Below are positions 30,061-64,000 of a DNA stretch of 64,000 nt, one piece after another. The first letter of the stretch is position 1. Every line of letters begins with the position of its first letter. Source of the DNA: Apostichopus japonicus (lineage: Eukaryota; Echinodermata; Holothuroidea; Aspidochirotida; Stichopodidae); assembly GCF_037975245.1 (NCBI RefSeq), contig NC_092572.1:22736489-22800488 (forward strand), written 5' to 3'. Both the position numbers and the translations under genes were made by a program. The notes beneath the pieces are model-generated. The model was not told the origin of the DNA, ran no database searches, and was given only the letters and a program-made list of their open reading frames with translations.

Positions 30061-30606
30061 GTTACACTATATCGATATTTTTCAAGGCAATGAAAAGCAG
30101 AACGGTTTAAAACTAGCTTGTAAATGTGAAGTCACAAAAGCCTGCAATATATTGCTTACTTCTATAATCATATAAAAGTCTTACAGCCAATACTTGTAAG
30201 CTATTTAATTTTGGCTCAATAGGTTCATTTGTTCAGTCGATGGATTCATTTAAAATATGTTATGTCCTCCTTATCTCACTTCAATGTTCTATTGTAACAT
30301 CAACATTAAATGAAAATAAAGTTTTCGTTTTCTTACGATATGAAAAGCTTTGTTATCTTTGAATTACTTCCAGTTCATGACATCAGGTCCGTATGTCGAA
30401 ATTTCACAAGGAAACACCCCCCCCCCCTCCTCACCGCCCCCACTATTCCTCCACCACTCACCACTCCTATCACAGGAGAATACGTCCAATAATAAATAAT
30501 TAAGTTTCTTACCCCCTCCTCATACATTCCTGGTTAAAGGGTTGTATTTGAGTAGCACATTAATTAGTTTGTTAAGATGCAAAGCGTGGTTCAGCTATGA
30601 AAGGAA

Positions 30607-30899
30607 CAGGAATGTGCATAATAAGATTTGAAATATACAGTATCCATAAAGAGAGAGGACTAAAGTACTCTACAAACATTATAGTTCTTGTTTTTATACT
30701 GAGAACAAGGGAATGTCTTGCAATTTACAATACCCATAAAGGGAAAGAACTGTATAACAGTTTCTTTTTTTTATACTGAGGACAAGGGAATGCCTTGAAA
30801 AATACAATAAGATTCGAGAGAAAGAACTAAACTAAGTACTATACAAACATAACAGGTTCTTGTATTTATACTAAAGACAAGGGAATGTCTTGCATTACA
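30607..30899. repeat. Triplicated ~90-bp segment upstream of gene copy 1
   Basis: Three diverged copies end in GGGAATGTCTTGCA-like sequence at about 30,709, 30,786 and 30,882. The corresponding place in units 2-4 has a single copy (for example 38,285-38,405). Confidence 0.7.
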
Positions 30900-31437
30900 C
30901 AGAAACACACAATTGCTTAATCATAATAAATAGCAACGCAACTGAACACTTAATTTGCATAATAAACGAACAGATTCTTTTAAGTGACTACATTACCACG
31001 AAAGTAAGTAGTCTACAAACGCGTAACATAAAGATACGCCGTAATTTACTTCAACTTAACAAGAACCAATCCTAGACTGGGTGATAACTTAAACGACTGA
31101 TGACATAAACCTCATACTCGGGAATGTGAAAACCGTGTTATGAAATCATTTCACACGTTTTAAAAGCAAAATATAGCACCATTTTGCACCCACCTAACTT
31201 GGGCGACCTAACATCGTATACACCTTCTTAAGTGCAAAACAGGAGGTTGCCTACTATACTGGTGTGTGTGTCATCATTTTACAACAACTTCAAGATCTCA
31301 TGAATTGCTGCATAGTAGACCATTTGGTGTCTAATCCGACTGACACCTGTTACCGTACACTGGTTTGCTCTGATTCGATTACCTCAAAACCAGTAAACGA
31401 CTTTTTTCTTATGGTAAGGTATTCCTGGAAAAGTTCA

Positions 31438-31565
31438 CGATGACTGGGATGTGTGAACTGTACACTAAGGTAACCAAGCTGTCTCTACATGCCAGCCCAT
31501 GTAAGAATTGATTACTCTTTGGGGCCGTATCCACCATTTTAGTTATGCAGAGTGGGAATGGATAT
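31438..31565. repeat. Single copy of the ~100-bp intergenic minisatellite
   Basis: Contains TAAGGTAACCAAGCTGTC, CATGTAAGAATTGATTACTC and CCACCATTTTAGTTATG, the landmarks that are tandemly repeated at the same place in units 2, 3 and 4. Confidence 0.8.
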
Positions 31566-32465
31566 GATGTTATATCGTACCGAGTAAATGTCTAATGGGA
31601 GGGGGTAGTTGTGGAAAATTGCTATAATTTTCAACTATTTAAAACAAAGATGAACGTGCGGAGGGGAGGGCTTTTCCTCCTTCGTTTTATGGTGGGTTTC
31701 ACCCACCCCCTGCACCCCCTATAAGTTACACCCCTGTCACTCTGTATATAAATTACCGTACAGCTAATACACAGGTGAGTATATTAGAATACCATGAATA
31801 TTCAGTAGGGTGTATCGTGTTCATTCTGAAAACTATATTCAACAAGTCTGCTACATAGTGCACACTGTTTAATTTAGTAAATTCAAAATGGCGCACAGCA
31901 TACAATGTGCTCTTCATAAGAGTTGATACTCGATAATAGATTACTTTACCAGCAATGTGTATTTTTTCTTGTGGAGCCTAAACCCTCAATAACATCATAC
32001 TGGTTAATGCCAAATCATTGCATTTGTCATCATAAATGAAAACAGCAATTTTACCTTACAAATGACACCTTAAACCTAACTAAATGTCTTTATTTCTTAG
32101 TTATTTGCCTATTTTCTTCTCTTTTATCTTTTCTTGCTTAACTTTGGTAAAACAAGAATGGAATCAACTAATCGTTTTCTACAGACCACAATTCTGCTAA
32201 GAGTAAACATTGGAGGTTTAAACGAATGAATATCGGTCGGGGATGAAACTAGCTAACAGATTGGTAGGTACTTTATACTTGTTTTTTTTTTTTTGCATAC
32301 GTGTGTTCTCTCAAGTATGAATAGTTTTTTTTTTCATTTACAAATTAATGAATTTTACACAAAACCTAATGACGCTTTCTACGTGAATATTAATTATATC
32401 TATAATTATACATTATAATTATATCCATGGCTTAAGGTACTGACGTAGGTACGGTTCATTACGTG

Positions 32466-32637
32466 TGACGTCATTCACCCTAAAGATAAAAAATATATAA
32501 CCACCCAGAAGAAAATACTTCATCAAAACTTCTTATAAAAAGCAAGGACAGGCACCATCTCGGTACATTCAAAAAGATCCTAGCCGAAGCATCGCTTGTG
32601 TGTTTATTACATCCGAAGTTACTCCATTGAAGATTCT
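32466..32637 (+). promoter_or_regulatory. Promoter and non-coding exon 1 of gene copy 1
   Basis: In order: TGACGTCA (32,466-32,473), AAATATATAACC, TATAAAA (32,534-32,540), then a ~75-nt transcribed segment ending AAGATTCT before the donor GTAAGT at 32,638. The spacing from TATA box to donor (104 bp) is the same in copies 1, 2 and 3. It contains no start codon in frame with the protein, so exon 1 is read as 5' untranslated. Confidence 0.65.
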
Positions 32638-34771
32638 GTAAGTACCAATTTGATTATTTTTGATTTTACTTTTAAAAGGTTCTCTTCGACATTCTGAAGT
32701 TGTAGTTTCTGTACTTACTTATATCGGAAATGTGTCATACATATATATTTATATTTACGGAGGTTTAAGGAGGCTCGTCAATTTAAATGTCAAATCTTTT
32801 CCATATACAAAAAGTAAATATAAAGGCATTCATATATGCTTGTCCTTCCTGGACTAAAGATTTCGGGTGTTAAAAATTATGAAGGATCTCAAGCGATCGA
32901 CGGTTTTAACAAACTTGTTTGTAGTTTAATTTTCTTTCCGCCTCTGCGTTGATTTCAGATATAGCAACAATGTTTTTTAACTTCTGATCATCTGTTTAAT
33001 AGTGTACTGATGTGTGCTTTCTTGTGACGAAAACTCAGAAGAGTTATTACCAGGTTTACCAGTCGCATTAAAATCAGTTTAATCTACATGTTGTTTGTCA
33101 GTTAAACACAAATGAGTCAAACTTACAACCTAGGCATTTCTACGCTGAAACAAATAGATATATAACCTTTTAGCAGCAATATTGGTTTCCCGTTATTTCA
33201 AGAGATTATGCCATAACAATAATGAATATGTGTTTAACTTCGTATTGTGGTTCATGGTTACACATCAATGGATACATTTCACGGTCCCATCTTTAATGAC
33301 AAGTTTATTTGGACATAATATCCATAGTCGGCATTGAAAGATTTCACTTTTTTACTAAAAATGTATTAAACCGTCAATAACATAAACATAAACAATTATT
33401 TTAACAATCAGTGAAAAACTTTTCAGGAAGAAAGGGGGCGAAATTTTCTTGGACTGGTGTGAGGGCGGTAACAACGTGCAAACAAAAACCTGTAACGTTA
33501 TCATGTACAAAGATTTCAAGTTAAATGTGATTAATTACTTCAGTTTTACCTGTAACCAAATTGAAACGGTAAACTTTTTAAATGATAAAATAAAGTAAAT
33601 GGTCACTCAGTTGCATTAAAGAGTGCAACTTTTTTCATACTTATGGAAAAGGAAAAGCCAAGAGTTTCGTAATTCTATTTCATATGATCTTTATTTAAAC
33701 AACAGAGGAAAGAAATGAAATTAATGCTACTTTTGTTAACCAACATTACAATATTAAGAGTTTTTACTATCGATGTGGGAGAGATTCGTTGATATGTTTC
33801 AGATGAAGGAAGACAGTGTTTGATATATTCAACTTCGAGTGCGAAGCTGTAAATAATAGTAGTATGATCTGATACTATAATAGACTAACTTTTAGTGTAA
33901 CGATTTGGAAATATCAACCCCTTTATATGATCCAGAAATTCAACGTGAAAATGTAAAACTGTTCAAGTTAATTTAATGCGATGATGAATGGATACTGTAA
34001 ATGCATACTTGTTCTCTCAAATTTGTCATGAAGAATTAATTAACTGGAATTATGTGATATAGCCTATCACCTGTTGGATGAATCGAATTGCTTAGTTTTG
34101 ATCATATATCAGTAACTAAATAATGAATAGAATGTACTTCAACTGTAAGACATCGTGATAGGAAACAATGAACTCAAATTAAGTTCCTACCAAGATTATA
34201 TCAGAGACTTGAAGACATATGGTGTTCCAACTCACATACAGTGATTCCAACAAGGTTTTATTTCTTTACTTATCCCTTGTAAATTAAAAGTATTAAAATA
34301 TTATAAATTAGAAAAAGTTCATTGAAAATGTATCAATTTAGCTTATATCTTAATAGATGGATAAAAAAAAGTACAAAATATGTAACAACTATGTCACTCT
34401 TTGTGAGTACAGATAAAAACGACAAAATAAAGTTACCACCGTTTTCCTACTGTCTTTCTTTATTTTCTTTTATAGTATTATTATTTTATGTTTGAAATGC
34501 TTAACATTATTCGAGATTTAAAATTCATAGCAATTCAAGTTATTGGTTCACAGGTATAATTGTGAATTCAAACAATAGAGAAGCTTCCAGATTTCTGATT
34601 AAACCTGGAAGTTGAAAATAGGCATTAAACTTATAGAAAACAGTAACTTTTTCCAAATGTATGGTATTATACAGCTACCTGGTTTATTATACATTTTGTC
34701 TAGTTATGGACTATGAAACGCTTCAATATGTTTATTTTCTTTCTTTTTTTCTTTTCTTTTTCTGAAGCACC

Positions 34772-35998
34772 ATGCAATCTAAAATCGTATATTTCCTTCT
34801 GGCACTGTCTGTGCTCGTTGCCGTGGCAGCTGCTTACGAGGAGGAGGATGAGCTGCTCGACATGATGGTGGATAATTACATGGTGAAGAGAGGCAAAGGA
34901 AAGGGGAAAGGCAGAGGAAGGGGGAAAGGAAACTCGGGATATGTAGGTAAGTAATGAAACCTAGATGAGGGCTAACTTACCAGTCACTTCTGCATCTTTT
35001 AAAGTATTTCAACAACAAAAAATGCCACTTTTTTCTATTGAAGGTTGTATTTGCATTCTACAAGTACACCTTAAAATAATCAGCTACATGTTTATAATGA
35101 CTTATTGTAAAAACGAGAATGAAATATTTTTCCATAGCTATAAATTGTCTTTCAAAACAATTTTTTCGGAGTTAAAATATAAGTGATGAATAAAAACACT
35201 CGATTAAGAATCAATTAAATAATCAATATTTCCTCTACCTCTGTTCACATGATAATTCCTCTGTATTTCATGTCATATTTTAGAATGTCCTGGTAAACCG
35301 CATTGCTTCTGCTTACAAAAACCCGATGGCACATATCAAGAAGCAGCCTGTGGATCTCGTAAGTACAAATGAAATTCATTGGTTGAATCTAAGTGTATTT
35401 GTGTACTAAATCGTATTGTGTTTGTCAAATATTTACTTATGCAAATCGGGTAGCATGTCAAAGTTCAATAAAGTTAATAGTTTCGTTATAGATGTGCCAC
35501 CGAGGGTTCTTCCCAACCATTAATAAGTCTCCGTATGATAACGCTAGTTAGAATAATATTGGTTATTCATAGTATCATCTGCCAGCTAAAGACTTATTGA
35601 ATTCGGATCCTTTTTAAATGAAGAAAGATCAAAGGAGTTATATTTGGAGCATGAAGCAGAACGTAGTATGTTACTGGCCATTTATCGACAATTCAACTGT
35701 GTATTCATGTTTATAAATGAATCTTGCGATAAGGTCCTATCTTCTATTTAAACATTGCTCGTTTTCTCAATTAAATATTGCAGCAAGAATAGGTTAAAAT
35801 TTAAAGTTTTAAGATTAGATCCTCATCGTTAACCAGCATTGCGATCTTGCAAATAAGGAAACATAATGTCATGACTCCCTCGAAATGATATCTATAAATT
35901 AAAAATCATTAAATGATCCTCCACGTATTATTCATTTTAATTTCGTTTGATTGTTTTTTATTTTTACGTTTTCAGTCCTTGGCAACGTTGGACTCTAA
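34772..35998 (+). CDS. Secreted cationic four-cysteine peptide precursor, copy 1
   Basis: Coding exons 34772-34946, 35284-35358 and 35976-35998 (273 nt, 90 aa), with exon 1 untranslated near 32,562-32,637. Exon 2 follows a long pyrimidine tract (acceptor at 34,766-34,767), and ATG is four bases in (CACCATG). Layout: residues 1-21 signal peptide (MQSKIVYFLLALSVLVAVAAA); 22-38 acidic pro-segment (YEEEDELLDMMVDNYMV); KR at 39-40, a prohormone-convertase-type site; 41-53 Gly-Lys/Arg repeat (GKGKGKGRGRGKG); then a tail with Cys spacing C-x5-C-x-C-x12-C, ending LLGNVGL. The mature form is about 50 aa with net charge near +5. The arrangement resembles antimicrobial precursors such as echinoderm strongylocins in logic but not in cysteine pattern. 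Adhesive or signalling roles are alternatives. Poly(A) signals are at 36,332 and 36,357. Confidence 0.85.
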
Positions 35999-36331
35999 TC
36001 CAAAGTATGGAACAGACCTCTCCCTGTTTGACATTTGACCTGTATCCACCGACGACAGCCAATTATAGCATCTAGGCTACTGCAACATAAAATGTAGATG
36101 TTGATTATTGAATTTTCAAAGTCAGCAGCTTAACTAAGAATGAAGTGTGAGCCTCACAACCGATAATTGTAGGCCAACATGGGTACCTCTTTTTTTTTTT
36201 TTTTGAGGTATATCAATGAGCGTTTCTTGCTGTAGCTGTGCTCCTAAACTCGTGCGGTTATGTCAGTGGATTTCTCAAGACTAAGAAATTGAATTTATAT
36301 CTCGTTTTAATGTTCTATAAAATGAATTAAA

Positions 36332-36362
36332 AATAAAGAGTTTTCGTTTGCAGTAAAATAAA
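36332..36362 (+). terminator. Poly(A) signals of copy 1
   Basis: AATAAA at 36,332-36,337 and 36,357-36,362, about 335-360 nt after the stop codon. Both are conserved in copies 2 and 3. Confidence 0.6.
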
Positions 36363-38944: not shown

Positions 38945-39480
38945 TGTCTGAACTGTAAACTAAGGTAACCAAGGTGTCTCTACATGTCAGTCCATGTCAG
39001 TAATAGTTTCTCTGTACGGGGGGGGGGGGGGTATCCACCATTTTAGTTATGGAACTGTAAACTAAGGTAACCTAGCTGTGTCTACATGTCGGTCCATGTA
39101 AGTAACAGTTTCTCTGTGGGAGGGGGGTGGGTATCCACCATCTTAGTTATGGAACTGTACACTTTAAGGTAACCAAGGTGTCTCTACATGTCATCCCATG
39201 TTAGTATCGGTTACACTGTGGGGGCGTTTAATCATTTTAGGTTTTGAATTGTACACTAAGGTAACCAAGCTGTCTCTACATGTCAGTCTGTGTAAATATT
39301 GGTTACTCTTAGGAGGGGGCGTATGTAAGTATTTGGTTACTCTCTGGGGCGTATCCACCCTTTTAGTTATGGAACTGTACACGATGGTAACAAAGCTGTC
39401 TCTACATGTTAGTCCATGTAAGTATTGGTTACTCTTTGGGTCGTTTCCACCATTTTACTTATGCGGAGTGGCAAGGGCTA
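38945..39480. repeat. Intergenic minisatellite of unit 2 with poly-G runs
   Basis: Five to six copies of a 92-126 bp motif; landmark GGTAACC/GGTAAC at 38,964, 39,066, 39,168, 39,260 and 39,386. Each has TCTCTACATGTCAGTCCATG and a G-run (for example 12 G at about 39,019-39,030). The frames it opens are repeat by-products. Confidence 0.85.
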
Positions 39481-40917: not shown

Positions 40918-41090
40918 TGACGTCCTTCATCTTAAAGATAATAAATATATAACCATCCAGTAGAAAATACTTAATCAAAAAGTTGTTATAAAAAGCAAGG
41001 ACAGGCACCATCTTGGTACATTCAAAAAGATCCTAGCCGAATCATCGCTTGTGTGTTTATCATATCCGAAGTTACTCCATCGAAATTTCT
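40918..41090 (+). promoter_or_regulatory. Promoter and non-coding exon 1 of gene copy 2
   Basis: TATAAAA at 40,987-40,993, then exon 1 ending ATTTCT before donor GTAAGT at 41,091. The upstream motif is TGACGTCC (40,918-40,925), not the palindromic TGACGTCA of copies 1 and 4. Confidence 0.65.
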
Positions 41091-43281
41091 GTAAGTACCA
41101 AATTTTGATTATTTCAATTCAAATTTTACTCTTAAAATATACTCTTCGATATTCAAAAGTTCTAGTTTCTGTACTAGCTTATGTTAGAAATGTTTCATAT
41201 ATATATATATTTATATTTACTTCAAGTTTAAGAAGGCTCGTCAATTTAAATCTCAAATCTTTTCCATTTACATGACAAGAAAGAAAAACTAATGAGGGAA
41301 ACTGCAAATTTAAAAGCATCGTACCTTATTTAGGCATTAATATATGCTTGTCCTTCCTGGACTAAAGATTTCAAGTGTAAACAAATCTAAAGGATCTCAA
41401 GCGATCGACAGTTTTAACAAACTTGTTTGTAGTTTCATTTTCTTTCCGCCTCTGTTTTGATTGCATATATAGCAACGATGTTTTTAAACTTCTTTTCGTC
41501 TGTTTAATAGTGTACTGCTGTGTGCTTAATTGTGACGAAAACTCAGAAGAGTTATTACTAGGTTTACCAGTCGCATTAAAATCAGTTTAATCTACATGTA
41601 GTTTGTTAGTTAAACACAAATAAGTCAAACATACAACCTAGGCATTTCTTGGACGCTGAAACAAATAGATATAGAACCTTAAGATTTCAAATTAAATGTG
41701 ATTAATTACTTCAGTTTCACCTATAACCAAAATGAAACGGTAAACTTTTTAAATGATAAAATAAAGTAAATGGTCACTCAGTTGCATTATAGAGTACAAC
41801 TTTTTTCCATACTTATGGAAATAGGAGAAGCCAAGAGTTTCGTAATATCATTTGATATGATCTTTCGTGAAACAAAAGAGGAAAGAATTGAAATTAATGT
41901 TACTTTTGTTAATCAACATTATAATATTAAAAGTGTTTACTATCGATGTGGGAAAGATTCCTTTATATGTTTCAGATGAAGAAAGACAGTATTTGATATA
42001 TTCAACTTCAAGTGCGAAGCTGTAAATAATAGTAGTATGATCTGATACTATAATAGACTAACTTTTAGTGTAACGATTTGGAAATATCAACCCCTTTATA
42101 TGATCCAGAGAGTAAAGAGTGTTGAGGCGTGTTTTTGTCATATTGTGGCTGGGTGTTTCATGTAAAACTGAATTGTTTATGGTTCCTCCAATTTAAATGA
42201 TGTTACATTGGTTGTATATTACAAAATCAGCTAAACTCAATATGTTGTTTCTGAGGGTATGTTTTAAAGGGAGTTTGTCGTTCCATCAGTATACTTTAGA
42301 AGGTTGAGACGGGACCAGTCGCTTGATTGTGACGATGTATTCATTAAATGACCTACTTTAATGAACATACAAATGTTGACTCTGTTTATTCTGGAGGAGG
42401 AAGCTCTTTACGAACTCCTGGGTCTTTCGATTTATGTGTTACGAAATTCAACGTGAAAATGTAAAACTGTTCAAGTTAATTTAATGCGATGATGAATGGA
42501 TACTGTAAATGCATACTTGTTCTCTCAAATTTGTCATGAAGAATTAATTAACTGGAATAATGTGATATAGCCTATCACCTGTTGAATGAATCGAATTGCT
42601 TAGTTTTGATCATATATCAGTAACTAAATAATGAATAGAATGTACTTCAACTGTAAGACATCGTGATAGGAAACAATGAACTCAAATTAAGTTCCTTACT
42701 ACCAAGATTATATCAGAGACTTGAAGACATATGGTGTTCCAATTCACATACAGTGATTCCAACAAGGTTTAATTTCTTTACTAATCCCTTGTAAATTAAA
42801 AGTATTAAAATATTATAAATTAGAAAAAGTTCATTGAAAATGTATCAATTTAGCTTATATCTTAATAGATGGATAAAAAAGTACAAAATATGTAACAACT
42901 ATGTCACTCTTTGTGAGTACAGATAAAAACGACAAAATAAAGTTACCACCGTTTTCCTACTGTCTTTCTTTATTATCTTTTATAGTATTATTATTTTATG
43001 TTTGAAATGCTTAACATTATTCGAGATTTAAAATTCATAGCAATTCAAGTTATTGGTTCAAAAGTATACTTGTGAATTCAAACAATAGAGAAGCTTCCAG
43101 ATTTCTGATTAAACCTGGAAGTTGAAAATAGGCATTAAACTTATAGAAAACAGTAACTTTTTCCAAAAGTATGGTATTAGACAGCTACCTGGTTTATTAT
43201 ACATTTTGTCTAGTTATGGACTATGAAACGCTTAAATATGTTTATTTTCTTTCTTTTTTTCTTTTCTTTTTCTGAAGCACC

Positions 43282-44510
43282 ATGCAATCTAAAATCGTAT
43301 ATTTCCTTCTGGCACTGTCTGTGCTCGTTGCCGTGGCAGCTGCTTACGAGGAGGAGGATGAGCTGCTCGACATGATGGTGGATAATTACATGGTGAAGAG
43401 AGGCAAAGGAAAGGGGAAAGGCAAAGGAAAGGGGAAAGGAAAATTGGAATTTGTAGGTAAGTAATGAAACCTAGATGAGGGCTAACTTACCAGTCACTTC
43501 TGCATCTTTTAAAGTATTTCAACAACAAAAAATGCCACTTTTTTCTATTGAAGGTTGTATTTGCATTCTACAAGTACACCTTAAAATAATCAGCTACATG
43601 TTTATAATGACTAATTGTAAAAACGAGAATGAAATATTTTTCCATAGCTATAAATTGTCTTTCAAAACAATTTTTTCGGAGTTAAAATATAAGTGATGAA
43701 TAAAAACACTCGATTAAGAATCAATTACATAATCAATATTTCCTCTACCTTTGTTCACATGATAATTCCTCTGTATTTCATGCCATATTTTAGAATGTCC
43801 TGGTAAACCGCATTGCTTCTGCTTACTAAGGCCCGATGGCTCATATCAAGAAGCAGCCTGTGGTTCTCGTAAGTACAAATGAAATTCATTGGTTGAATCT
43901 AAGTGTATTTGTGTACTAAATCGTATTGTGTTTGTCAAATATTTACTTATGCAAATCGGGTAGCATGTCAAAGTTCAATAAAGTTAATAGTTTCGTTATA
44001 GATGTGCCACCGAGGATTCTTCCCAACCATTAATAAGTCTCCGTATGATAACGCTAGTTAGAATAATATTGGTTATTCATAGTATCATCTGCCAGCTAAA
44101 GACTTATTGAATTCGGATCCTTTTTAAATGAAGAAAGATCAAAGGAGTTATATTTGGAGCATGAAGCAGAACGTAGTCTGTTACTGGCCATTTATCGACC
44201 ATTCAACTGTGCATTCATGTTTATAAATGAATCTTGCGATAAGGCCCTTTATCTTCTATTTAAACATTGCTCGTATTCTCAATTAAATATTGCAGCAACA
44301 ATAGGTTAAAATTTAAAGTTTTAAGATTACATTCTCATCGTCAACCAGCATCGCGATCTTGCAATTAAGGAAACATGATGTCATGACTCCCTCGAAATGA
44401 TATCTACTAATTAAAAATCATTAAATAATCCTCCACGTATTTTGCATTTTAATTTCGTTTGATTTTTTTTTATTTTTACGTTTTCAGTCCTTGGCAACGT
44501 TGGACTCTAA
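43282..44510 (+). CDS. Secreted cationic four-cysteine peptide precursor, copy 2
   Basis: Coding exons 43282-43456, 43794-43868 and 44488-44510 (90 aa), with exon 1 near 41,015-41,090. The signal peptide, acidic pro-segment and KR site are identical to copy 1. The repeat is seven uninterrupted Gly-Lys pairs followed by LEFV, where copy 1 has Arg substitutions and NSGYV. In the tail, copy 1's LQKPDGTY becomes LLRPDGSY; the four cysteines and the LLGNVGL end are kept. Poly(A) signals are at 44,751 and 44,776. The 3' untranslated region is shortened relative to copy 1. Confidence 0.85.
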
Positions 44511-44750: not shown

Positions 44751-44781
44751 AATAAAGAGTTTTCGTTTGCAGCAAAATAAA
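44751..44781 (+). terminator. Poly(A) signals of copy 2
   Basis: AATAAA at 44,751-44,756 and 44,776-44,781. Confidence 0.6.
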
Positions 44782-47369: not shown

Positions 47370-47800
47370 CTGTAAACTAAGGTAACCAAGGTGTCTCTAC
47401 ATGTCAGTCCATGTCAGTAATTGTTTCTCTGTTGGGAGGGGGGGGGTATCCACCATTTTAGTTATGGAACTGTAAACTAAGGTAACCTAGCTGTGTCTAC
47501 ATGTCGGTCAATGTAAGTAATAGTTTCTCTGTGGGAGGGGGGGGGGGGGGATCCACCATCTTAGTTTTTGAATTGTACACTAAGGTAACCAAGCTGTCTA
47601 TACATGTCAGTCCATGTAAGAATTGGTTATTCTCTGGGGGCGTATCCAAAAGTTTAGTTATGCAACTGTACACCATAGTTACAAGTTGTCTCTACATGTC
47701 AGTCTGTGTAAATATTGGTTACTCTTAGGAGGGGGCGTATGTAAGTATTGGTTACTCTGTGGGGCGTATCCACCATTTTACTTATGCGGAATGGGAAGGG
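47370..47800. repeat. Intergenic minisatellite of unit 3 with poly-G runs
   Basis: About four copies of the ~100-bp motif found at 38,945-39,480, with a run of 12 or more G at about 47,537-47,550. It has fewer copies than unit 2. Confidence 0.8.
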
Positions 47801-49254: not shown

Positions 49255-49427
49255 TGACGTCCTTTACCTTAAAGATAATAAATATATAACCATCCAGTAG
49301 AAAATACTTAATCAAAAAGTTGTTATAAAAAGCAAGGACAGGCACCATCTTGGTACATTCAAAAAGATCCTAGCCGAATCATCGCTTGTGTGTTTATCAT
49401 ATCCGAAGTTACTCCATCGAAATTTCT
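49255..49427 (+). promoter_or_regulatory. Promoter and non-coding exon 1 of gene copy 3
   Basis: TGACGTCC (49,255-49,262), TATAAAA (49,324-49,330), exon 1 to 49,427, donor GTAAGT at 49,428. Nearly identical to copy 2. Confidence 0.65.
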
Positions 49428-52069: not shown

Positions 52070-52511
52070 ATGTATCAATTTAGCTTATATCTTAATAGAT
52101 GGATAAAAAAGTACAAAATATGTAACAACTATGTCACTCTTTGTGAGTACAGATAAAAACGACAAAATAAAGTTACCACCGTTTTCCTACTGTCTTTCTT
52201 TATTATCTTTTATAGTATTATTATTTTATGTTTGAAATGCTTAACATTATTCGAGATTTAAAATTCATAGCAATTCAAGTTATTGGTTCAAAAGTATAAT
52301 TGTGAATTCAAACAATAGAGAAGCTTCCAGATTTCTGATTAAACCTGGAAGTTGAAAATAGGCATTAAACTTATAGAAAACAGTAACTTTTTCCAAAAGT
52401 ATGGTATTAGACAGCTACCTGGTTTATTATACATTTTGTCTAGTTATGGACTATGAAACGCTTAAATATGTTTATTTTCTTTCTTTTTTTCTTTTCTTTT
52501 TCTGAAGCACC

Positions 52512-53740
52512 ATGCAATCTAAAATCGTATATTTCCTTCTGGCACTGTCTGTGCTCGTTGCCGTGGCAGCTGCTTACGAGGAGGAGGATGAGCTGCTCGA
52601 CATGATGGTGGATAATTACATGGTGAAGAGAGGCAAAGGAAAGGGGAAAGGCAAAGGAAAGGGGAAAGGAAAATTGGAATTTGTAGGTAAGTAATGAAAC
52701 CTAGATGAGGGCTAACTTACCAGTCACTTCTGCATCTTTTAAAGTATTTCAACAACAAAAAATGCCACTTTTTTCTATTGAAGGTTGTATTTGCATTCTA
52801 CAAGTACACCTTAAAATAATCAGCTACATGTTTATAATGACTTATTGTAAAAACGAGAATGAAATATTTTTCCATAGCTATAAATTGTCTTCTAAAACAA
52901 TTTTTTCGGAGTTAAAATATAAGTGATGAATAAAAACACTCGATTAAGAATCAATTACATAATCAATATTTCCTCTACCTTTGTTCACATGATAATTCCT
53001 CTGTATTTCATGTCATATTTTAGAATGTCCTGGTAAACCGCATTGCTTCTGCTTACTAAGGCCCGATGGCTCATATCAAGAAGCAGCCTGTGGTTCTCGT
53101 AAGTACAAATGAAATTCATTGGTTGAATCTAAGTGTATTTGTGTACTAAATCGTATTGTGTTTGTCAAATATTTACTTATGCAAATCGGGTAGCATGTCA
53201 AAGTTCAATAAAGTTAATAGTTTCGTTATAGATGTGCCACCGAGGATTCTTCCCAACCATTAATAAGTCTCCGTATGATAACGCTAGTTAGAATAATATT
53301 GGTTATTCATAGTATCATCTGCCAGCTAAAGACTTATTGAATTCGGATCCTTTTTAAATGAAGAAAGATCAAAGGAGTTATATTTGGAGCATGAAGCAGA
53401 ACGTAGTCTGTTACTGGCCATTTATCGACCATTCAACTGTGCAATTATGTTTATAAATGAATCTTGCGATAAGGCCCTATATCTTCTATTTAAACATTGC
53501 TCGTATTCTCAATTAAATATTGCAGCAACAATAGGTTAAAATTTAAAGTTTTAAGATTACATTCTCATCGTCAACCAGCATCGCGATCTTGCAATTAAGG
53601 AAACATAATGTCATGACTCCCTCGAAATGATATCTACTAATTAAAAATCATTAAATAATCCTCCACGTATTTGGCATTTTAATTTCGTTTGACTTTTTTT
53701 TATTTTTACGTTTTCAGTCCTTGGCAACGTTGGACTCTAA
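52512..53740 (+). CDS. Secreted cationic four-cysteine peptide precursor, copy 3
   Basis: Coding exons 52512-52686, 53024-53098 and 53718-53740 (90 aa), with exon 1 near 49,352-49,427. The predicted protein is identical to copy 2: same signal peptide, acidic pro-segment, KR site, seven Gly-Lys pairs with LEFV, and four-cysteine tail with LLRPDGSY. Intron 1 is about 3.1 kb because of the 894-bp duplication; splice signals are unaffected. Poly(A) signals are at 53,981 and 54,006. Identity with copy 2 implies very recent duplication or conversion. Confidence 0.85.
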
Positions 53741-53980: not shown

Positions 53981-54011
53981 AATAAAGAGTTTTTGTTTGC
54001 AGCAAAATAAA
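53981..54011 (+). terminator. Poly(A) signals of copy 3
   Basis: AATAAA at 53,981-53,986 and 54,006-54,011. Confidence 0.6.
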
Positions 54012-56604
54012 GCAGTGTGTTTTTTCTTCTTTCTATACTATTGAAGCGAATTGTGACGTTTTTTGATCAACTACCCATGGTCCCTCTCCTACCATCTTCT
54101 CCCTAACTTGTCTTTATTCATGTCGGATCATGCCATCCTTTATAAAGGATTTATAAAGGAAATGTAATTTCTCAGTTTTAAGAGTGGGTTTCTTCTAATA
54201 AGTTCCAGGCGGTGTTCATTCATTACAAAGAGCTCCTCTTGCGATTGAATTTACTTGCAAACACCGTGATTAGATATGAAGTTCATCCTGTTTAGTCCTG
54301 ATATATCGGATAACTATATTTTGACTGCTGCGACAACTTGAAAGAAAATGGAGTCATATTGGTACTAATCTAACAGAGGGCGCTTCTCTGACTTGTACAT
54401 TAAAGTAGTTCTACTGTAACGAAGCTCTGTCATAACAACACTGTTTGAATCTCATCTCACTCATCTCAAACATTTTAATTGCAATTTCATGTCACGCCTC
54501 AAATCCCTTACAGTAGTATTAACAGTATAGAGATCCGATACCGACCAGATTAACTTTGCATACTGGCAGTACGAGTGCTATCAAACATGATGTGAGAAAA
54601 CAATATAGAGTGTTATCAGTATTAGAAAATGGTCCAAACAGTTCTATCAGTTCGAACAGTAAATTAAGTCAATTGTCCCTCATTCTCGCTATATTCGCCC
54701 TAATCTGGCCTCCATTTTGCTTCGACTATCTTCATCTAATCTGGCCGCCATTTTGCTTCGACTATCTTCATATGGTTGCGTTGCTGATTAATTTAATAAT
54801 TTCTTCCTGGTAGTTTGAACAACACTTTAATTCGGTTATCCCTAATTGTCCCTAATCTGGTGCCCCCTTTGTTCCTATTACTTTTATTGACTTGTTCGTT
54901 GTTTTCATCATATCACAAATACACTCCAAAGTAGAAATATGGACGAAGAATTCTCAGCCAGACTTGTCAATAACACTTCACGTTATGTTATTTAAAGGCT
55001 TGGTGACATACCTTCAAATGTGTTCTATAATTAGACATTTAAAATAAATACATTTTAGCAGCCAAGCGGATATCTAAAAACATGCTTGTATTGGGTGAAA
55101 GATTTTATTTAGAAAGATTTGTTGATTTTCACTAATTAATTTAATAACAAATTAATATTAGAGGTCGAGAAACCACGAACGTAGTATTGACCCTTTGTTC
55201 TATTGTAACATCAAATTAAATAAAAATTAAATTTTCCTTTTCTTACAAGAAGAAAAGATTTGTTCATTTTGAAATTACCTCCATTTCTTTTGTTTCAGGC
55301 CCTTATTATAACATTTGTAAGAAAACAATCCCACCCATCCCTTCCTCTTCCTCATGTCCGCCCAAGTTAATTCAAATATTAAGGAGTACATATTATCTTA
55401 TTCATTTATTTATTTAGCTATTTACATATGCCTACTGTTTCATTAGTGTGCTTAACAATTAAAACCTGATGAACCTGTCCTCATGTTTCTTACCCCCTCC
55501 TCATAAATTCCTGGTTAAAGGGCCTGTGTTTGAGTAGCACATTAATAAGTTTCTTCCTATAATTTGTCCTCATTCTCCATTACCCCCTTCTCCCTTTAAT
55601 CCTAAATGCATGGCAGACCATCAAATGGAGTACTTTCAGTTTCAGGTAATCACAGATGAATAAACATAAAATATCTTACAAACGCGTCATTTCTCTTTTC
55701 TGTTGGAAACGCCCCACCGCATCCCACACCCTATAACCTTCTGTCTTCCTCTCCATCGCTCAACCTTACCACTATACTTTCTTCCGTCGTACCCCCGTCC
55801 CTCATAATATCTATTATTATGTGACCTCCGTAAGTGGTTTGTTAACTACCGTTAGTTAAACAACAGAGAAAGGCCAAGCATCTCTCAATTAGTCACCATA
55901 GACTTAAATGAACTTCATACTCGTTAGATAAGACAAAGCGTGGTTCAGCAAGACTTGAAATATGCAATAACCCATAAAGAGAGAGAACTAAAGTACTCTA
56001 CAAACATAATAGTCTGTTGTATTTATACTGAATGCAATGGAAATACTTGCATTACAAAGAAACACACGATGGCTTGAACATAATAAACAGCAACGCATCC
56101 CACTGAACACTTAATTTCCATAATAAACGAACAGATTCTTTTAAGTTATTACATTACCTCGAAAGTGTGCATTATACAAACGCATAATATTAAAATACGC
56201 CATAATTTACTTCAAACCATCAAGAACCAATCCTAGACTAAGTGACAACTGAGACGACTAATGACAAGTACATTATGCACGGGAATGTGTAAACTGTCTT
56301 ATCAACTCGTTTCAGAAGTTTCAAAATCAAAATATAGCACTTTTTTCCACCAAACTCACTTAAACGACCTAACATAGTTAACACCTTTTTAAGTGTAAAA
56401 TAGGTGTATGTGTGTCATTATTTTACAACAAATTCAGGATCTCAGGAAGTGCTGCAATGGTAGATCATTTGGAATAAAATCCGAATGTCACCTGTTACCG
56501 TACACAGGTCTTCTCTGAGTCGATCACGCCAATACCAGTAAACGACTCTCTCTTGTGGTAAGGTAATGCCGGAAAAGTTGACAATGACTGTGGATGTCTG
56601 AACT

Positions 56605-57215
56605 GTAAACTAAGGGAACCAAGGTGTCTCTACATGTCAGTCCATGTCAGTAATAGTTTCTTTGTACGGGGGGGGGGGGATCCACCATTTTAGTTATGGA
56701 ACTGTAAACTAAGGTAACCTAGCTGTGTCTACATGTCGGTCCATGTAAGTAATAGTTTTTCTGTGGTAGGGGGGGGGGGTATCCACCATCTTAGTTATGG
56801 AACTGTACACTTTAAGGTAACCAAGGTGTCTCTACATGTCAGCCCATGTTAGTATCGGTTACACTGTGGGGGCGTTTAATCATTTTAGGTTTTGAATTGT
56901 ACACTAAGGTAACCAAGCTGTCTCTTCATGTCAGTCCATGTAAGAATTGGTTATTCTCTGGGGCGTATCCAAAAGTTTAGTTATGCAACTGTACACCATA
57001 GTTACAAGTTGTCTCTACATGTCAGTCTGTGTAAATATTGGTTACTCGGGGAGGGGGCGTATGTAAGTATTTGGTTACTCTGTGGGGCGTATCCACCCTT
57101 TTAGTTATGGAACTGTACACGATGGTAACAAAGCTGTCTCTACATGTTAGTCCATGTAAGTATTGGTTACTCTTTGGGTCGTTTCCACCATTTTACTTAT
57201 GCGGAGTGGCAAGGG
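56605..57215. repeat. Intergenic minisatellite of unit 4 with poly-G runs
   Basis: About six copies of the ~100-bp motif, with G-runs of about 10-11 near 56,669-56,679 and 56,768-56,778. It is the longest of the three arrays. Confidence 0.8.
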
Positions 57216-58656
57216 CTATGATGTTATATCGTCCCGAGCAAGTGTCTATTTGCAGTGGGAAATTGTAGAAAACTGCTATTATTTGCAACTATTGAAAACA
57301 ATGTTTCAAAAGTGAACGTGCGGCGGGAGGGCTGTTCCTCCTTGATTTTATTGTGAGTTTCACCCCACCTCAACCTCCCGCAGAGGTTGCGCCCTATGTT
57401 TATCTGTATGTACGTTACCGTACAGATAAAACATAGGGGAGTATATTAGAATACCCTTGCCCATTATTATTCAGTAGGGTGCATCGTGTTCATTCTGAAA
57501 CCTTTATCCGACAAGTCTGCTACATAGTGTATACTGTTTAAAAGAGTACATTCAAACTGGTGCACAGCACACAATGTGCTCTACGTAAGAGTTTATACTC
57601 GATAATGAATTGATTGTTATACTTGAAATGTGTATATTTTGTTTTGTTCTCTTTCAACTGTGGATGAGTTAACAATATATAATAATTTTCAGTTCTCTTT
57701 GCATATTCACCTCCTCAAAGTTACGTTCGATCTTGCTGTGAAAACCTGCATTATTGTTTTGATTTCACTTTCATCGCGATGTAGCCTAACTTTCAATAAC
57801 ATCAAAGGGATTGATGCCCAATCATTGCACTTGTCATAATCAATAAGAACCGCATTTTTACCTCATGCATGATATGTTAAGCCTAACTAAATGTCATGAT
57901 CTACGAAGAACCAAAATACCCCTTAACGCATAGACTCTTGAAGTGCGACCTGATTAATTCACTTTGACTTCAGAGCACAACGTTTATGTATGTTACCGTG
58001 TTGGACGAATCTAACCGTAATAGTAGTTACCGACTTTACGATCTGCGTTATAGTCTTTGCCGACTTTGCAATCCGCTGTCCTCTTATTGCAAGGTCGGTA
58101 AAAGTGACTCCATAGTTTTCCCCCTTTAGGGAAACCAAACAGGAAACATTAGAAATTGATTATTTAATTCCCCGAATGTGAGTTACAGATGGCGAAATGT
58201 CACAATTTTGTTCAATGCATACGTTGCTTAGAAAAAAATGTGGGCGAGATTTAAGTCAACTATGTGTCTGCTATAGACAATGAATACATGAATAGACTTC
58301 AGCGAGATCTTTATTTCTTAGTGATTTTTCTTAATTTATTTCCTTTTATCTTTCCATGCTTAACTTTGGTAAAACAAGAACGGAATCAACTAATCGATTC
58401 TACAGACCAAAATTCTGCTAAGAGTAAACGTTGGAGGAATATACGAATTAATATCGGTCGGGAATAAAAATAGTCAACAGATTGGTCAGTACTTTATACT
58501 TGTTTTTCCATATGTGTGTTCTCTCAAGTATCACGTGTATTTTTTTTTAATATTACAAATTAATCATTTTTACACAAACCTAATGACGCGTTCAACGTGA
58601 AGATTATTGATATATCCGTGGGTTTATGTACTGAGGTAGACACGGTTCATGACGTG

Positions 58657-58760
58657 TGACGTCATTCGCCTTAAAGATAATAAATATATTGCCATCCAGT
58701 AGAAAATACTTAATCAAAAAGTTGTTATAAAAAGCAAGGACAGGCACCATCTTGATAAGT
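58657..58760 (+). promoter_or_regulatory. Promoter of copy 4 with exon 1 deleted
   Basis: TGACGTCA (58,657-58,664) and TATAAAA (58,726-58,732) are kept, but about 75 bp corresponding to exon 1 is missing at 58,754. At the junction the donor GTAAGT of copies 1-3 is ATAAGT. A transcript started here would lack the normal first exon and its splice donor. Confidence 0.75.
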
Positions 58761-61282
58761 ACCAAATTTTGAATATTTTTCAATTCAAATTGTACTCTTA
58801 AAATATACCCTTCGACATTCTGAAGTTGTAGTTTCTGTACTAGCTTATATTGGAAATGTTTCATACATATATATTTATATTTACTTCAAGTTTAAGAAGG
58901 CTCGTCAATTTAAATGTCAAATCTTTTCCATTTACATGAAAAGAAAGAATAACTAATGAGTGAAACTGCAAATTTAAAAGCATCGTACCTTATTTAGGCA
59001 TTAATATATGCTTGTCCTTCTTGGACTAAAGATTTCAAGTGTTGAAAAATGTAAAGGATCTCAAGCGATCGACAGTTTTACCAAACTTGTTGGTAGTTTC
59101 ATTTTCTTTCCGCCTCTGCTTTGATTTCATATATAGCATCAATGTTTTTTAACTTCATTTCGTCTGTTTAATAGTGTACTGCTGTGTGCTTAATTGTGAC
59201 GAAAACTCAGGAGAGTTATAACCAGGTTTACCAGTCGCATTAAAATCAGTTTAATCTACATGTTGTTTGTTAATTAAACACAAATGAGTCAAACTTACAA
59301 CCTAGGCATTTCTTGGACGCTGAAACAAATAGATATATAACCTTTTAGCAGCAATATTGGTTTCCCGTTATTTCAAGAGATTATGCCATAACAACAATGA
59401 ATATGTGTTTAACTTCGTATTGTGGTTCATGGTTACATATCAATGGATACATTTCACGGTCTCATCCTTAATGACAAGTTTATTTGGACATAATATCCAT
59501 AGTCGGCATTGCGAGATTTCATTTTTTTACCAACAATTTTTTATTAAACCGTCAATAATATAGAAATAAACAATTATTTTAACAATCAGAGAAAGAATTT
59601 TTCAGGAAGAATGGGGGCGGGATTATCTTGGACTGCTGTGAGGGCGGTAAAAGTGTGCAAATATAAACCTCTAACGTCATCACGTACAAAGATTTCCAAG
59701 TTAAATGTGATTAATTACTTCAGTTTCACCTATATCCAAAATGAAACGGTAAACTTTTTAAATGATAAAATAAAGTAATTGGTCATTTAGTTACATTAAA
59801 GAGTGCAACTTTGTTTCATACTTATGGAATAGGAAAAGCCAAGAGTTTCGTAATTCTATTTGATATGATCTTTTGTTAAACAACAGAGGAAATAAATAAA
59901 ATTAATGTTACTTTTGTTAACCAACATTACAATATTAAGAGTTTTTACTATCGATGTGGGAAAGATTCGTTGATATGTTTCAGTTGAAGGAAGACAGTGT
60001 TTGATATATTCAACTTCGAGTGCGAAGCTGTAAATAATAGCAGTATGATCTGATACTATAATAGACTAACTTGTGTAACGATTTGGAAATACCAACCCCT
60101 TTATATGATCCATAGAGTAAAGAGTGTTGAGGTGTGTTTTGTGTGATATGGTGGCTGAAGGTTTCATGTAAAACTGAATTGTTTATGGTTCCTCCAATGT
60201 AAATTATGTTACATTGGTTGTATCTTACAAATCAACTCACCTAAATATGTTGTTTATGAGGACTCAAAGCATGTTTTACCTAGGAGTTTGTCGCTCCATC
60301 AGTGTACTTTAGAAAGTTGAGACGGGACCAGTCGTTTGATTGTGACGATGTATCCATTAAATGACCTACTTTTATGAACTTACATATGTTGACTCTGTTC
60401 ATTCGGGAGAAGGAAGCTCTTAACAAAATCCTGGGTCTTTCGATTTATGTGTTACGAAATTCAACGTGAAAATGTTAAACAGTTTAAGTTAATTTAATGG
60501 GATGATGAATAAATAATGTAAAAAGGCATACTTCTTCTCTCAAATAAGTCATGAAGAATTAATTACCTGGAATAATGTGATACATTACATATTGAATGAA
60601 TCGAATTGTTTAGTCTTGATCATATATCAGCAACTAAATATTGAATACAAAGTACTTAAACTGTAGGACAGCGTGATAAGAAACAATGAACTCAATTTAA
60701 CTTCCTTACTACGAAGATTAGATATAAGAGACATATGGTGTTCCAACTCACATGCAGTGATTCCAACGATGTTTATTTCTTTACTCATCACTTGTAAATT
60801 AAAAGTATCAAAATATTGTAAATTAGTAAAAGTTTATAGAAAATGTATAAATTTAGCTTATGTCTTAATAGATGGATAAAAAGGTAGAAAATATGTTATC
60901 TATGTCACTCTTTGTGAGTACAGATAAAAACGACAAAATAAAGTTACCACCGTTTTCCTACTGTCTTTTTTTATAATCTTTTATAGAATTATTATTTTAT
61001 ATTTATAATGCTTAACATTATTCGAAATTTAAAATTCATAGCAATTCAAGTTATTGGTTCAAAAGTATAATTGTGAATTCAAACAATAGAGAAGCTTCCA
61101 GATTTCTGATTAAACCTGGAAGTTGAAAATAGGCATTAAACTTATAGAAAACAGTAACTTTTTCCAAAAGTATGGTATTAGACAGCTACCTGGTTTATTA
61201 TACATTTTGTCTAGTTATGGACTATGAAACGCTTAAATATGTTTATTTTCTTTCTTTTTTTCTTTTCTTTTTCTGAAGCACC

Positions 61283-62363
61283 ATGCAATCTAAAATCGTA
61301 TATTTCCTTCTGGCACTGTCTGTGCTCGTTGCCGTGGCAGCTGCTTACGAGGAGGAGGATGAGCTGCTCGACATGATGGTGGATAATTACATGGTGAAGA
61401 GAGGCAAAGGAAAGGGGAAAGGCAAAGGAAAGGGGAAAGGAAAATTGGAATTTGTAGGTAAGTAATGAAACCTAGATGAGGGCTAACTTACCAGTCACTT
61501 CTGCATCTTTTAAAGTATTTCAACAACAAAAAATGCCACTTTTTTCTATTGAAGGTTGTATTTGCATTCTACAAGTACACCTTAAAATAATCAGCTACAT
61601 GTTTATAATTGATAATTCCTCTGTATTTCATGTCATATTTTAGAATGTCCTGGTAAACCGCATTGATTCTGCTTACAAAGACCCGATGGCTCATATCAAG
61701 AAGCAGCCTGTGGATCTCGTAAGTACAAATGAAATTTTTTGGTTGAATCTAAGTGTATTTGTGTACTAAATCGTATTGTGTTTGTCAAATATTTACTTAT
61801 GCAAATCGGGTAGCATGTCAAAGTTCAATAAAGTTAATAGTTTCGTTATAGATGTGCCACCGAGGGTTCTTCCCAACCATTAATAAGTCTCCGTATGATA
61901 ACGGTAGTTAGAATAATATTGGTTATTCATAGTATCATCTGCCAGCTAAAGACTTATTGAATTCGGATCCTTTTTAAATGAAGAAAGATCAAAGGAGTTA
62001 TATTTGGAGCATGAAGCAGAACGTAGTATGTTACTGGCCATTTATCGACAATTCAACTGTGTATTCATGTTTATAAATGAATCTTGCGATAAGGTCCTAT
62101 CTTCTGTTTAAACATTGCTCGTTTTCTAAATTAAATATTGCAGCAACAATAGGTTAAAATTTAAAGTTTTAAGATTAGATCCTCACCGTCAACCAGCATC
62201 GCGATCTTGCAATTAAGGAAACATGATGTCATGACTCCCTCGAAATGATATCTATAAATTAAAAATCATTAAATAATCCTCCACGTATTTTTCATTTTAA
62301 CTTCGTTTGATTGTTTTTTATTTTTACGTTTTCAGTCCTTGGCAACGTTGGACTCTAATCCAA
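61283..62363 (+). pseudogene. Fourth copy of the peptide precursor gene, disrupted
   Basis: Coding-exon equivalents are 61283-61457, 61644-61718 and about 62336-62358. Exon 2 is identical to copies 2 and 3, so signal peptide, pro-segment, KR and Gly-Lys repeat are intact. In exon 3 the codon for the second cysteine is TGA (61,664-61,666), which would end the product at 65 residues, after CPGKPH, with one cysteine. Intron 2 has a ~150-bp deletion near 61,610. Exon 1 and its donor are also lost (58,754). Exon 3 otherwise shares variants with copy 1 (TTACAA, GGATCT). A Gly-Lys-only product remains conceivable if another promoter is used. A poly(A) signal is kept at 62,675. Confidence 0.8.
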
Positions 62364-62674
62364 AGTATGGAAAAGACCTCTCCCTGTTTAACCTTTGACC
62401 TGTATCCACCGACGACAGCCAATTATATCATCTAGGCTACTACAACATAATATATTGATGTTGATTAATGAATATTCAAAGTCATCATCTTAACTAAGAA
62501 TGAACTGTGAGCCTCACAACCGATAATTGTAGGCCAACATGGTTACCTCTTTTGTTTTTTGAGGTATGTCAATGAACGTTTCTTGTGCGGTGCGGTGCGG
62601 TGATGTCAGTGGATTTCTCAAGACTAAGAAATTGAATTTATATGGCGTTTTAATGTTCTATAATATGAATTAAA

Positions 62675-62680
62675 AATAAA
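62675..62680 (+). terminator. Poly(A) signal retained by copy 4
   Basis: AATAAA in the same context as in copies 1-3. Confidence 0.5.
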
Positions 62681-63908
62681 GAGTTTTCGTTTGCAGCAAA
62701 ATAAAGCAGTGTTTTTTTCTTCTTTCTATACTTTCGAAGCAAATTGTGACGTTCTTGACCAACTACCCATGGTCCCTCTCCTACCATCTTCTCCCTAACT
62801 TGTCTTTATTCATGTCGTATAATGCCATCCTGTAGGATTTATGAAGGAAATGTAATTTCTCAGTTTTAAGGGTGGGTCTCGTCTAATAAGTTCCGGGCGG
62901 TGTTCATTCATTACAAAGAGCTCCTCTTGCGATTGAATTTACTTGCAAACGCCGTGATTAGATATGAAGTTCATCCTGTTTAGTCCTGATATATCGGATA
63001 ACTATATTTTGACTGCTGCGACAACTGGAAAGAAAATGGAGTCATATTGGTACTAATCTAACTGAGGGCGCTTCTCTGACTTGTACATTAAAGTAGTTCT
63101 ACTGTGATGAAGCTCTGTCATAACAAGACTGTCTGAATCTCATCTCACTCATCTCAGACATGTTGATTGTAATTCCATGTCACGCTTCTAAGCCCTTACA
63201 GTAGTATTAACAGTATAGAGATCCGATACCGACCAGATTAACTGTTCATATAAACTGGCAGTACGAGTGCTATCAAATATGATGTGAGAAAGCAATAAAG
63301 AGTGTTATCAGTATAAGAAAATGGTCCCAACAGTTCTATCCTAAATGTTCGAACAGTAAATTTAGTCAATTGTCCCTCATTTTTGCTATACTTGCCCTAA
63401 TCTGTCCTCCATTTTGCCTCGACTATCTTCATCTAATCTGGCCGCCATTTTGCTTCGACTATCTTCATATGGTTACGTTGCTGATTACTATGGGAACGTA
63501 ATTCAATAATTCCTTCCTGGTAGTTTGAATAACACTTTAATTCGGTTATCCCTACTTGTCCCTAATCTGGTGCCCCCTTTGTTCCCATCACTTTTATTGA
63601 CTTGTTCGTTGTTTTCATCATATCACAAATATACTCCAAAGTAGAAATAGGGACGAAGAATTCTCAGCCAGACTTGTCAATAACATTTCACGTATGTTAT
63701 TTAAAGGCTTGGTGACATACCTTCAAATGTGCTCTATAATTAGACATTTAAAATAAATACATTTTAGCAGCCAAGCAGATATCTAAAAACATGCTTGTAT
63801 TGGGTGAAAGATTTTATTTAGAAATATTTGATTTTCACTAACTAATTTAATAATAAATTAATATTAGAGGTCGAGAAACCACGAACGTAGTATTGACCCT
63901 TTGTTCTA

Positions 63909-64000
63909 TTGTAACATCAAATTAAATAAAAATTAAATTTTCCTTTTCTTACAAGAAGAAATAATTTGTTCATTTTGAAATTACCTCCATTTCTTTTGTT
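63909..64000 (+). repeat. Start of a fifth tandem unit (cut by window end)
   Basis: Matches the first ~90 bp of units 2, 3 and 4 (landmarks AAATTTTCCTTTTCTTACAA and TGAAATTACCTCCATTTC), so at least part of another unit follows. Confidence 0.6.

What the first reader, a model, noticed from the sequence alone, without database searches (positions are those of the whole stretch)
30290..64000. Tandem array of a secreted acidic-pro/Gly-Lys/four-cysteine peptide family
Seen: four units of 7.2-9.2 kb, each with a promoter-like region and the same four-exon structure, encoding a 90-aa precursor with signal peptide, acidic pro-segment, KR site, Gly-Lys repeat and C-x5-C-x-C-x12-C tail. Known: an acidic pro-segment that neutralises a cationic mature peptide, released at a dibasic site, is common in antimicrobial precursors. 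Inference: a new cationic defence peptide family; adhesive or signalling peptide not excluded. I do not recognise the cysteine pattern.
Basis: partly seen in the sequence, partly recalled or inferred. Interest (0 to 1): 0.88.

Follow-up and report, generated by a model that had tools for sequence, protein, structure and literature searches.

The report
Sea cucumber cationic four-cysteine peptide genes
A sea cucumber chromosome carries a family of about a dozen small genes for secreted, positively charged, cysteine-containing peptides that look like host-defence peptides, five of them in a tandem array, but their expression and activity have not been tested here.

Summary
The array is real. The predicted exons, splice sites and 90-aa precursor hold for three of the four window units. 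Unit 4 is broken: TGA at the second cysteine codon, and the exon-1 donor stretch is missing. A fifth, intact unit lies beyond the window. The genome is a sea cucumber, very probably Apostichopus japonicus. Main new result: seven strongly diverged paralogs on the same chromosome. Six of the seven have the matching cysteine exon, in the same phase, C-x5-C-x-C-x(12-13)-C; five also have a plausible last exon ending Gly-Ile or Gly-Leu. The gene structure is therefore supported by evolution, not by one sequence. Apart from its cysteines the core is poorly conserved, and pro-segment charge tracks mature charge (Spearman -0.88, n=7). Best reading: a secreted cationic host-defence peptide; this function is inferred. 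Pfam and PDB show no credible relative. Membership in the starfish CrAMP family could not be tested, because that sequence is not in the held library.

The parts
32465..32502 (+). unit 1 promoter-like: CRE-like GTGACGTCA and TATA
   Evidence: consensus matches only
32525..32637 (+). unit 1 exon 1 (5' UTR); start estimated from the TATA, donor after 32637
   Evidence: conserved with units 2, 3, 5
34768..34946 (+). unit 1 exon 2: signal peptide, acidic pro-segment, KR, Gly-Lys tail (CDS from 34772)
35284..35358 (+). unit 1 exon 3: four-cysteine core
35976..35998 (+). unit 1 exon 4 coding part, LLGNVGL and stop; AATAAA at 36332
40978..41090 (+). unit 2 exon 1 (approximate start), CRE-like at 40917, TATA at 40944
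43278..43456 (+). unit 2 exon 2
43794..43868 (+). unit 2 exon 3
44488..44510 (+). unit 2 exon 4 coding part
49315..49427 (+). unit 3 exon 1 (approximate start), CRE-like at 49254, TATA at 49281
52508..52686 (+). unit 3 exon 2, same protein as unit 2
53024..53098 (+). unit 3 exon 3
53718..53740 (+). unit 3 exon 4 coding part
58656..58752 (+). unit 4 remnant of promoter and exon 1; 3' part of exon 1 and its donor missing
61279..61457 (+). unit 4 exon 2, intact
61644..61718 (+). unit 4 exon 3 with an in-frame TGA at the second cysteine codon: broken copy
62336..62358 (+). unit 4 exon 4 coding part

Best explanation
This is a multigene family of secreted cationic host-defence-type peptides in a sea cucumber. 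Each complete gene has a predicted 5' UTR exon, an exon for signal peptide, acidic pro-segment and basic (mostly Gly-Lys) tail, an exon for a four-cysteine core, and an exon for a short C-tail ending in Gly-Leu or Gly-Ile. The precursor enters the secretory pathway. The acidic pro-segment keeps the basic mature part quiet until a furin/convertase-like enzyme cuts after Lys-Arg. The released peptide (41-53 residues in the complete models) has a flexible basic tail that binds anionic surfaces (bacterial envelope, lipopolysaccharide, sulfated glycans) and a small beta-hairpin held by two disulfides. Shown by sequence: exon structure, family, charges, conserved cysteines. Inferred: secretion, cleavage, disulfides, hairpin, antimicrobial action.
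For: Array and 90-aa product. Seven diverged paralogs, 42-46% identical to unit 1 over exon 2 for five of them, 35 and 37% for C3 and C2. Six of the seven have the cysteine exon in the same phase with consensus splice sites. Four cysteines are invariant in 8 of 8 core sequences aligned, while non-cysteine core identity is 23% against 49% for the signal peptide, a pattern common in defence peptides (general knowledge). Mature parts are basic, pI 8.8-10.3, in all 9 precursor types with a cysteine core. Pro charge tracks mature charge: Spearman -0.88, p 0.009; Pearson -0.75, p 0.052; n=7, leaving out the near-duplicates u2 and u5 and the incomplete C2. Unit 1 versus 2: 0 changes in 120 nt up to the cleavage site and 11 in 150 nt after it, 9 of them amino-acid changing, against 23 in 954 intron positions, Fisher p 0.0035. 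Tandem duplication with identical and broken copies.
Against: No transcript, proteome or activity data. No kappa-B consensus around 5 of 5 promoters. The recurrent Gly-[Ile/Leu] C-terminus is not an ordinary antimicrobial feature and could mean receptor recognition. The core plus C-tail has net charge 0 or below in 7 of 9 precursor types; the positive charge sits in the tail. C2 and C3 have Thr-Arg, not Lys-Arg, at the cut. C2 has no cysteine exon in the 18.6 kb read downstream, even with a relaxed pattern, and A2 no convincing last exon. The u1-u2 excess in the mature part holds against introns only: the 300 bp 3' of the stop differ at 14 of 207 aligned positions (6.8%), about as much as the mature coding part (7.3%), and gene conversion could also cluster changes.
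Confidence: 0.6

Rival explanations
1. A secreted signalling peptide (cytokine- or hormone-like) acting on a receptor, with the C-terminal Gly-Leu/Ile and cysteine hairpin as the recognised part.
For: The last exon ends in Gly-[Ile/Leu] in the five array units and, as chosen candidates, in 5 of the 6 paralogs that have a cysteine exon; processing grammar (signal, pro, Lys-Arg) is shared with neuropeptides (general knowledge); CRE-like element in 5 of 5 array promoters.
Against: Mature core less conserved than the signal peptide; tandem near-identical and broken copies; no C-terminal Gly for amidation; basic tail of variable length.
Confidence: 0.18
2. A structural or adhesive secreted peptide that binds sulfated glycans or mucus in the body wall or epidermis through its Gly-Lys tail.
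For: Basic repeats bind polyanions and sea cucumber body wall is rich in sulfated glycans (both general knowledge, no call).
Against: C1 and C3 have short tails without Gly-Lys repeats yet keep the cysteine core and C-tail, so the repeat is not the conserved part.
Confidence: 0.12
3. A small protease inhibitor or other binding module with a targeting tail.
For: CxC followed by a DG/NG turn and a distant Cys resembles the end of several small inhibitor folds (by eye, recalled).
Against: No credible Pfam or PDB match; no position between the cysteines is invariant.
Confidence: 0.06
4. Not a functional gene family; chance ORFs or a decayed array.
For: Unit 4 is broken; no transcripts could be checked.
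Against: Exon grammar 10 of 10 behind an exon 2 and 0 in 15.84 Mb control; frame and splice phases kept in six diverged paralogs.
Confidence: 0.03

Closest known systems
PpCrAMP, cysteine-rich antimicrobial peptide of the starfish Patiria pectinifera (Kim et al. 2018, doi 10.1016/j.dci.2018.05.002; paper not held, seen only through passages of the reviews PMC11767717, PMC12466427, PMC11273428, PMC9656538 and PMC6891385)
   Same: Echinoderm; cysteine-rich antimicrobial peptide; [quoted passage not shown] From recall only: about 38 residues, cationic, four cysteines paired C1-C3 and C2-C4.
   Different: Sequence not available here, so homology was not tested. A Gly-Lys tail is not mentioned in the passages I saw.
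Strongylocins and centrocins of sea urchins (PMC11767717 passage)
   Same: Cationic echinoderm defence peptides.
   Different: Strongylocins have six cysteines and a brominated Trp; centrocins are heterodimers of a 30-residue and a 12-residue chain joined by a disulfide. The present family has four cysteines and, as predicted, a single chain.
Holothuroidins of Holothuria tubulosa (passages of PMC11767717 and PMC10608444)
   Same: Cationic antimicrobial peptides of a sea cucumber; one review calls them the only characterised ones.
   Different: 12 and 14 residues, alpha-helical; too short to hold the four-cysteine core seen here.

Membership tests
Starfish/echinoderm CrAMP family (PpCrAMP) | Sequence homology to PpCrAMP | not testable with these tools
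   Paper not held; the name occurs in 3 held papers, and the passages shown from them give no sequence.
Starfish/echinoderm CrAMP family (PpCrAMP) | Small cysteine-rich mature peptide (four cysteines: recalled) | tested here: met
   Four invariant cysteines in 8 of 8 cores aligned; the count for PpCrAMP itself is recalled, not seen.
Starfish/echinoderm CrAMP family (PpCrAMP) | Beta-hairpin structure | not testable with these tools
   Structure prediction switched off; a DG or NG between Cys3 and Cys4 in 6 of 8 aligned cores is only suggestive.
Starfish/echinoderm CrAMP family (PpCrAMP) | Antibacterial activity | not testable with these tools
   No assay.
Antimicrobial-type precursor (signal, acidic pro, dibasic cut, cationic mature) | Acidic pro followed by basic mature part of balancing charge | tested here: met
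   Pro -2 to -12, mature +3 to +11 in 9 precursor types; Spearman -0.88, p 0.009, Pearson -0.75, p 0.052 in 7 paralogs.
Antimicrobial-type precursor (signal, acidic pro, dibasic cut, cationic mature) | Dibasic cleavage site | tested here: inconclusive
   Lys-Arg in 10 of 12 genes; Thr-Arg in C2 and C3.
Strongylocin | Six cysteines | tested here: not met
   Four cysteines in the mature part of each of the 9 precursor types with a cysteine exon.
Any Pfam-A family | Score above the curated cut-off | tested here: not met
   EBNA2_Core matched 4 of 9 precursors (best E 0.0013), on the Gly-Lys repeat and at 11.6 and 13.4 bits against a cut-off of 35 in the two members shown; DUF6520 (E 0.013), GRP (0.023) and Albumin_I (0.2) matched 1 of 9 each. 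Scores of the other members were not shown.

The most novel reading that the evidence does not exclude
A sea-cucumber-lineage host-defence peptide family of at least 12 loci, all detected on one chromosome, unrelated to any described antimicrobial family. Its mature peptide is bipartite (a length-variable basic tail encoded with the signal peptide, joined to a fast-evolving four-cysteine exon and a recurrent Gly-Ile/Leu end), and pro-segment acidity has co-evolved with mature charge.
Probability: 0.35. Interest if true: 0.65.

Novelty: new variant of a known kind. Interest (0 to 1): 0.5.

Why it matters
One review names holothuroidins as the only characterised sea cucumber antimicrobial peptides (PMC11767717 passage), although Apostichopus japonicus is called the most economically valuable sea cucumber (PMC10344927 abstract) and suffers from Vibrio splendidus (PMC6816312, listing). 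Twelve loci, nine of them with full coding models (units 1, 2, 3, 5 and A1, B1, C1, C3, D1), give peptides that can be synthesised and assayed at once. The paralogs also offer a natural test of charge co-evolution between a pro-segment and its peptide.

Tried and rejected
Relation to solved structures or Pfam: no PDB hit below E 0.07; most hits lie on the Gly-Lys tail, but one (Elongator complex protein 1, E 0.63) covers residues 58-76 with the first cysteines and was dropped as chance. Pfam as in the membership table. Which echinoderm class: a pattern for the NGFFY/NGFFFamide peptides gave 0 matches, the NGIWYamide pattern 5 tandem matches; that these peptides mark classes is recalled, with NGIWYamide tied to A. 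japonicus and NGFFYamide to starfish. Reading through exon 3 into the intron (...GSRKYK stop) as the real C-terminus: rejected, because read-through residues differ between paralogs while a later exon ending Gly-[Ile/Leu] recurs. The exon-4 choice in paralogs is partly post hoc: candidates ending in Gly plus Ile/Leu/Val/Met/Phe numbered 2 for A1, 4 for B1, 1 for C1, 1 for C3 and 2 for D1, and 2 unconvincing ones for A2. Off-chromosome exon-2 matches (5 of 16, 1 of 12, 0 of 10) had E 0.17 or worse; I inspected two, both low-complexity, and dropped all six. Exon 3 of unit 1 as query found 5 of 5 array units but no paralog, and the D1 core found only itself: single-core searches do not reach the paralogs, so members known only by their core could be missed. 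Kappa-B sites: none in 5 units with one strict consensus. My regex and first notes allowed 10-13 for the third cysteine gap; recounted it is 12-13.
Full report
What the window is. The window is G000:C12:22736489-22800488 of a 671,581,487-base genome in 35 contigs. A degenerate pattern for the sea cucumber neuropeptide NGIWYamide flanked by dibasic sites hits five times in tandem on C5, while the pattern for NGFFY/NGFFFamide gives none. The published chromosome-level assembly of Apostichopus japonicus is 671.60 Mb in 34 scaffolds and 23 chromosomes (PMC10344927, abstract and table headings seen in the outline). I take the species to be A. japonicus; this is inference from size and marker, not a label.

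The array. Self-comparison aligns the units from about 30.8 kb to the window end in pieces 74-99% identical; a short stretch at 30290 also matches inside the later units. Coding exons: exon 2 at 34772, 43282, 52512, 61283; exon 3 at 35284, 43794, 53024, 61644; exon 4 at 35976, 44488, 53718, 62336. Units 1-3 give a 90-aa precursor; units 2 and 3 are identical in protein. Exon 1 has a donor after 32637, 41090, 49427 and (unit 5, in window numbering) 68294. The TATA consensus was found in units 1-3 and the CRE-like TGACGTC in 5 of 5 units. Unit 4 has an in-frame TGA at the second cysteine codon, and 102 bp of unit 1 that include the exon-1 donor correspond there to 36 unaligned bp: two separate lesions. 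A fifth unit, intact, starts at C12:22807243, outside the window.

Paralogs. Whole-genome searches with exon 2 of unit 1, of paralog D1 and of paralog C2, and a profile of eight exon-2 sequences run on the regions fetched, give seven more genes, all on C12: A1 7078366(-), A2 7093658(+), B1 12350933(-), C1 12485472(-), C2 12491453(+), C3 12503234(-), D1 12615588(+). With the five array units that makes 12. Off-chromosome hits had E 0.17 or worse and were dropped. A strict exon-3 grammar (pyrimidine-AG, phase 1, C-x5-C-x-C-x(10-13)-C allowed, phase-1 GTRAG donor) was found behind 8 of 9 exon-2 sites examined one by one in 4 kb each (unit 1, unit 5 and the seven paralogs; C2 is the miss). On both strands of all 264 kb read it occurs 10 times, always behind an exon 2, and 0 times in 15.84 Mb, one strand, of order-1 random sequence. 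The observed third gap is 12 or 13 residues. For C2 a relaxed search of the remaining 18.6 kb downstream also found nothing. Spliced models for A1, B1, C1, C3, D1, and for A2 without its last exon, were checked against the DNA. Each exon 2 has an acceptor-like AG within about a dozen bases before the ATG, which suggests a 5' UTR exon in the paralogs too; no such exon was located there.

Last exon. In the five array units it encodes LLGNVGL. In A1, B1, C1, C3 and D1 a candidate behind a pyrimidine-rich tract ends in GFGL, NVGI, NIGI, QVGI and EIGI. For A2 no convincing one was found. Because I chose by the Gly-hydrophobic ending, this is supportive rather than independent evidence.

Evolution. 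Across seven distinct paralogs mean pairwise identity is 49% in the signal peptide, 40% in the pro-segment, 43% in the Gly-Lys tail, 37% in the cysteine core (23% without the cysteines) and 33% in the C-tail. Between units 1 and 2 there is no change in the 120 nt up to the cleavage site and 11 in the 150 nt of mature coding sequence (9 amino-acid changing), while introns 2 and 3 differ at 23 of 954 positions; Fisher p 0.0035 for mature versus intron. Against a simple selection story: the 3' flank of the same pair differs at 14 of 207 positions, about as much as the mature part; gene conversion is likely in such arrays; and unit 2 versus unit 5 shows 3 silent and 1 changing difference in the last 32 codons.

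Chemistry. In the 9 precursor types with a cysteine core, pro-segments carry -2 to -12 and mature parts +3 to +11. The two co-vary (Spearman -0.88, p 0.009; Pearson -0.75, p 0.052; n=7, without u2, u5 and C2). The positive charge is in the tail; the core plus C-tail lies between -3 and +2. Mature length is 41 to 53 residues in the complete models, and 61 for A2 without its last exon (all).

What it most likely does. The processing grammar, the charge balance, the variable core with fixed cysteines and the tandem copies point to a secreted cationic defence peptide: the tail docks on anionic surfaces and a disulfide hairpin acts beside it. This mechanism is inferred. The recurrent C-terminal Gly-Ile/Leu is the observation it explains least, and keeps a signalling role open.

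What is known. No Pfam family reaches its cut-off in the members shown and no solved structure matches below E 0.07. Text searches of the held library for peptide fragments of the family gave no paper; the 3 hits were for the name PpCrAMP. Further searches on echinoderm and sea cucumber antimicrobial peptides listed nothing recognisable as this family from titles and abstract starts: 15 of 5,859 listed; 20 of 201; 20 of 57; 19 of 19; 12 of 12; 15 of 17. A preprint on gene families of Holothuria glaberrima does not use the word antimicrobial (PMC13228809, passages). Reviews (passages) name PpCrAMP of a starfish as a cysteine-rich antimicrobial peptide, by two of them a predicted beta-hairpin and by one the prototype of an echinoderm family. 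Most subscription papers and general sequence databases were not searchable here, so 'not in print' cannot be claimed.

Noticed in passing
window 17229-20393, minus strand: Four open frames with immunoglobulin-domain matches (above a Pfam cut-off in two of the four), probably exons of an Ig-domain gene upstream of the array.
   Followed up: partly
window 1319-1927: Tandem repeat of a 103-bp unit, and duplicated stretches between about 1-6.5 kb and 8.2-11 kb.
   Followed up: no
window 38950-39222, 47367-47620, 56600-57045: A minisatellite with a unit of about 100 bp and poly-G runs sits in the spacer before units 2, 3 and 4.
   Followed up: no
G000:C12:12491453 (paralog C2): Exon 2 with a very basic GKKGRKGRKGRKG tail but no cysteine exon found in 18.6 kb downstream: decayed, or a cysteine-free variant.
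   Followed up: partly
G000:C5:20940018-20940202: Five NGIWYamide copies in tandem, the marker used to identify the class.
   Followed up: yes
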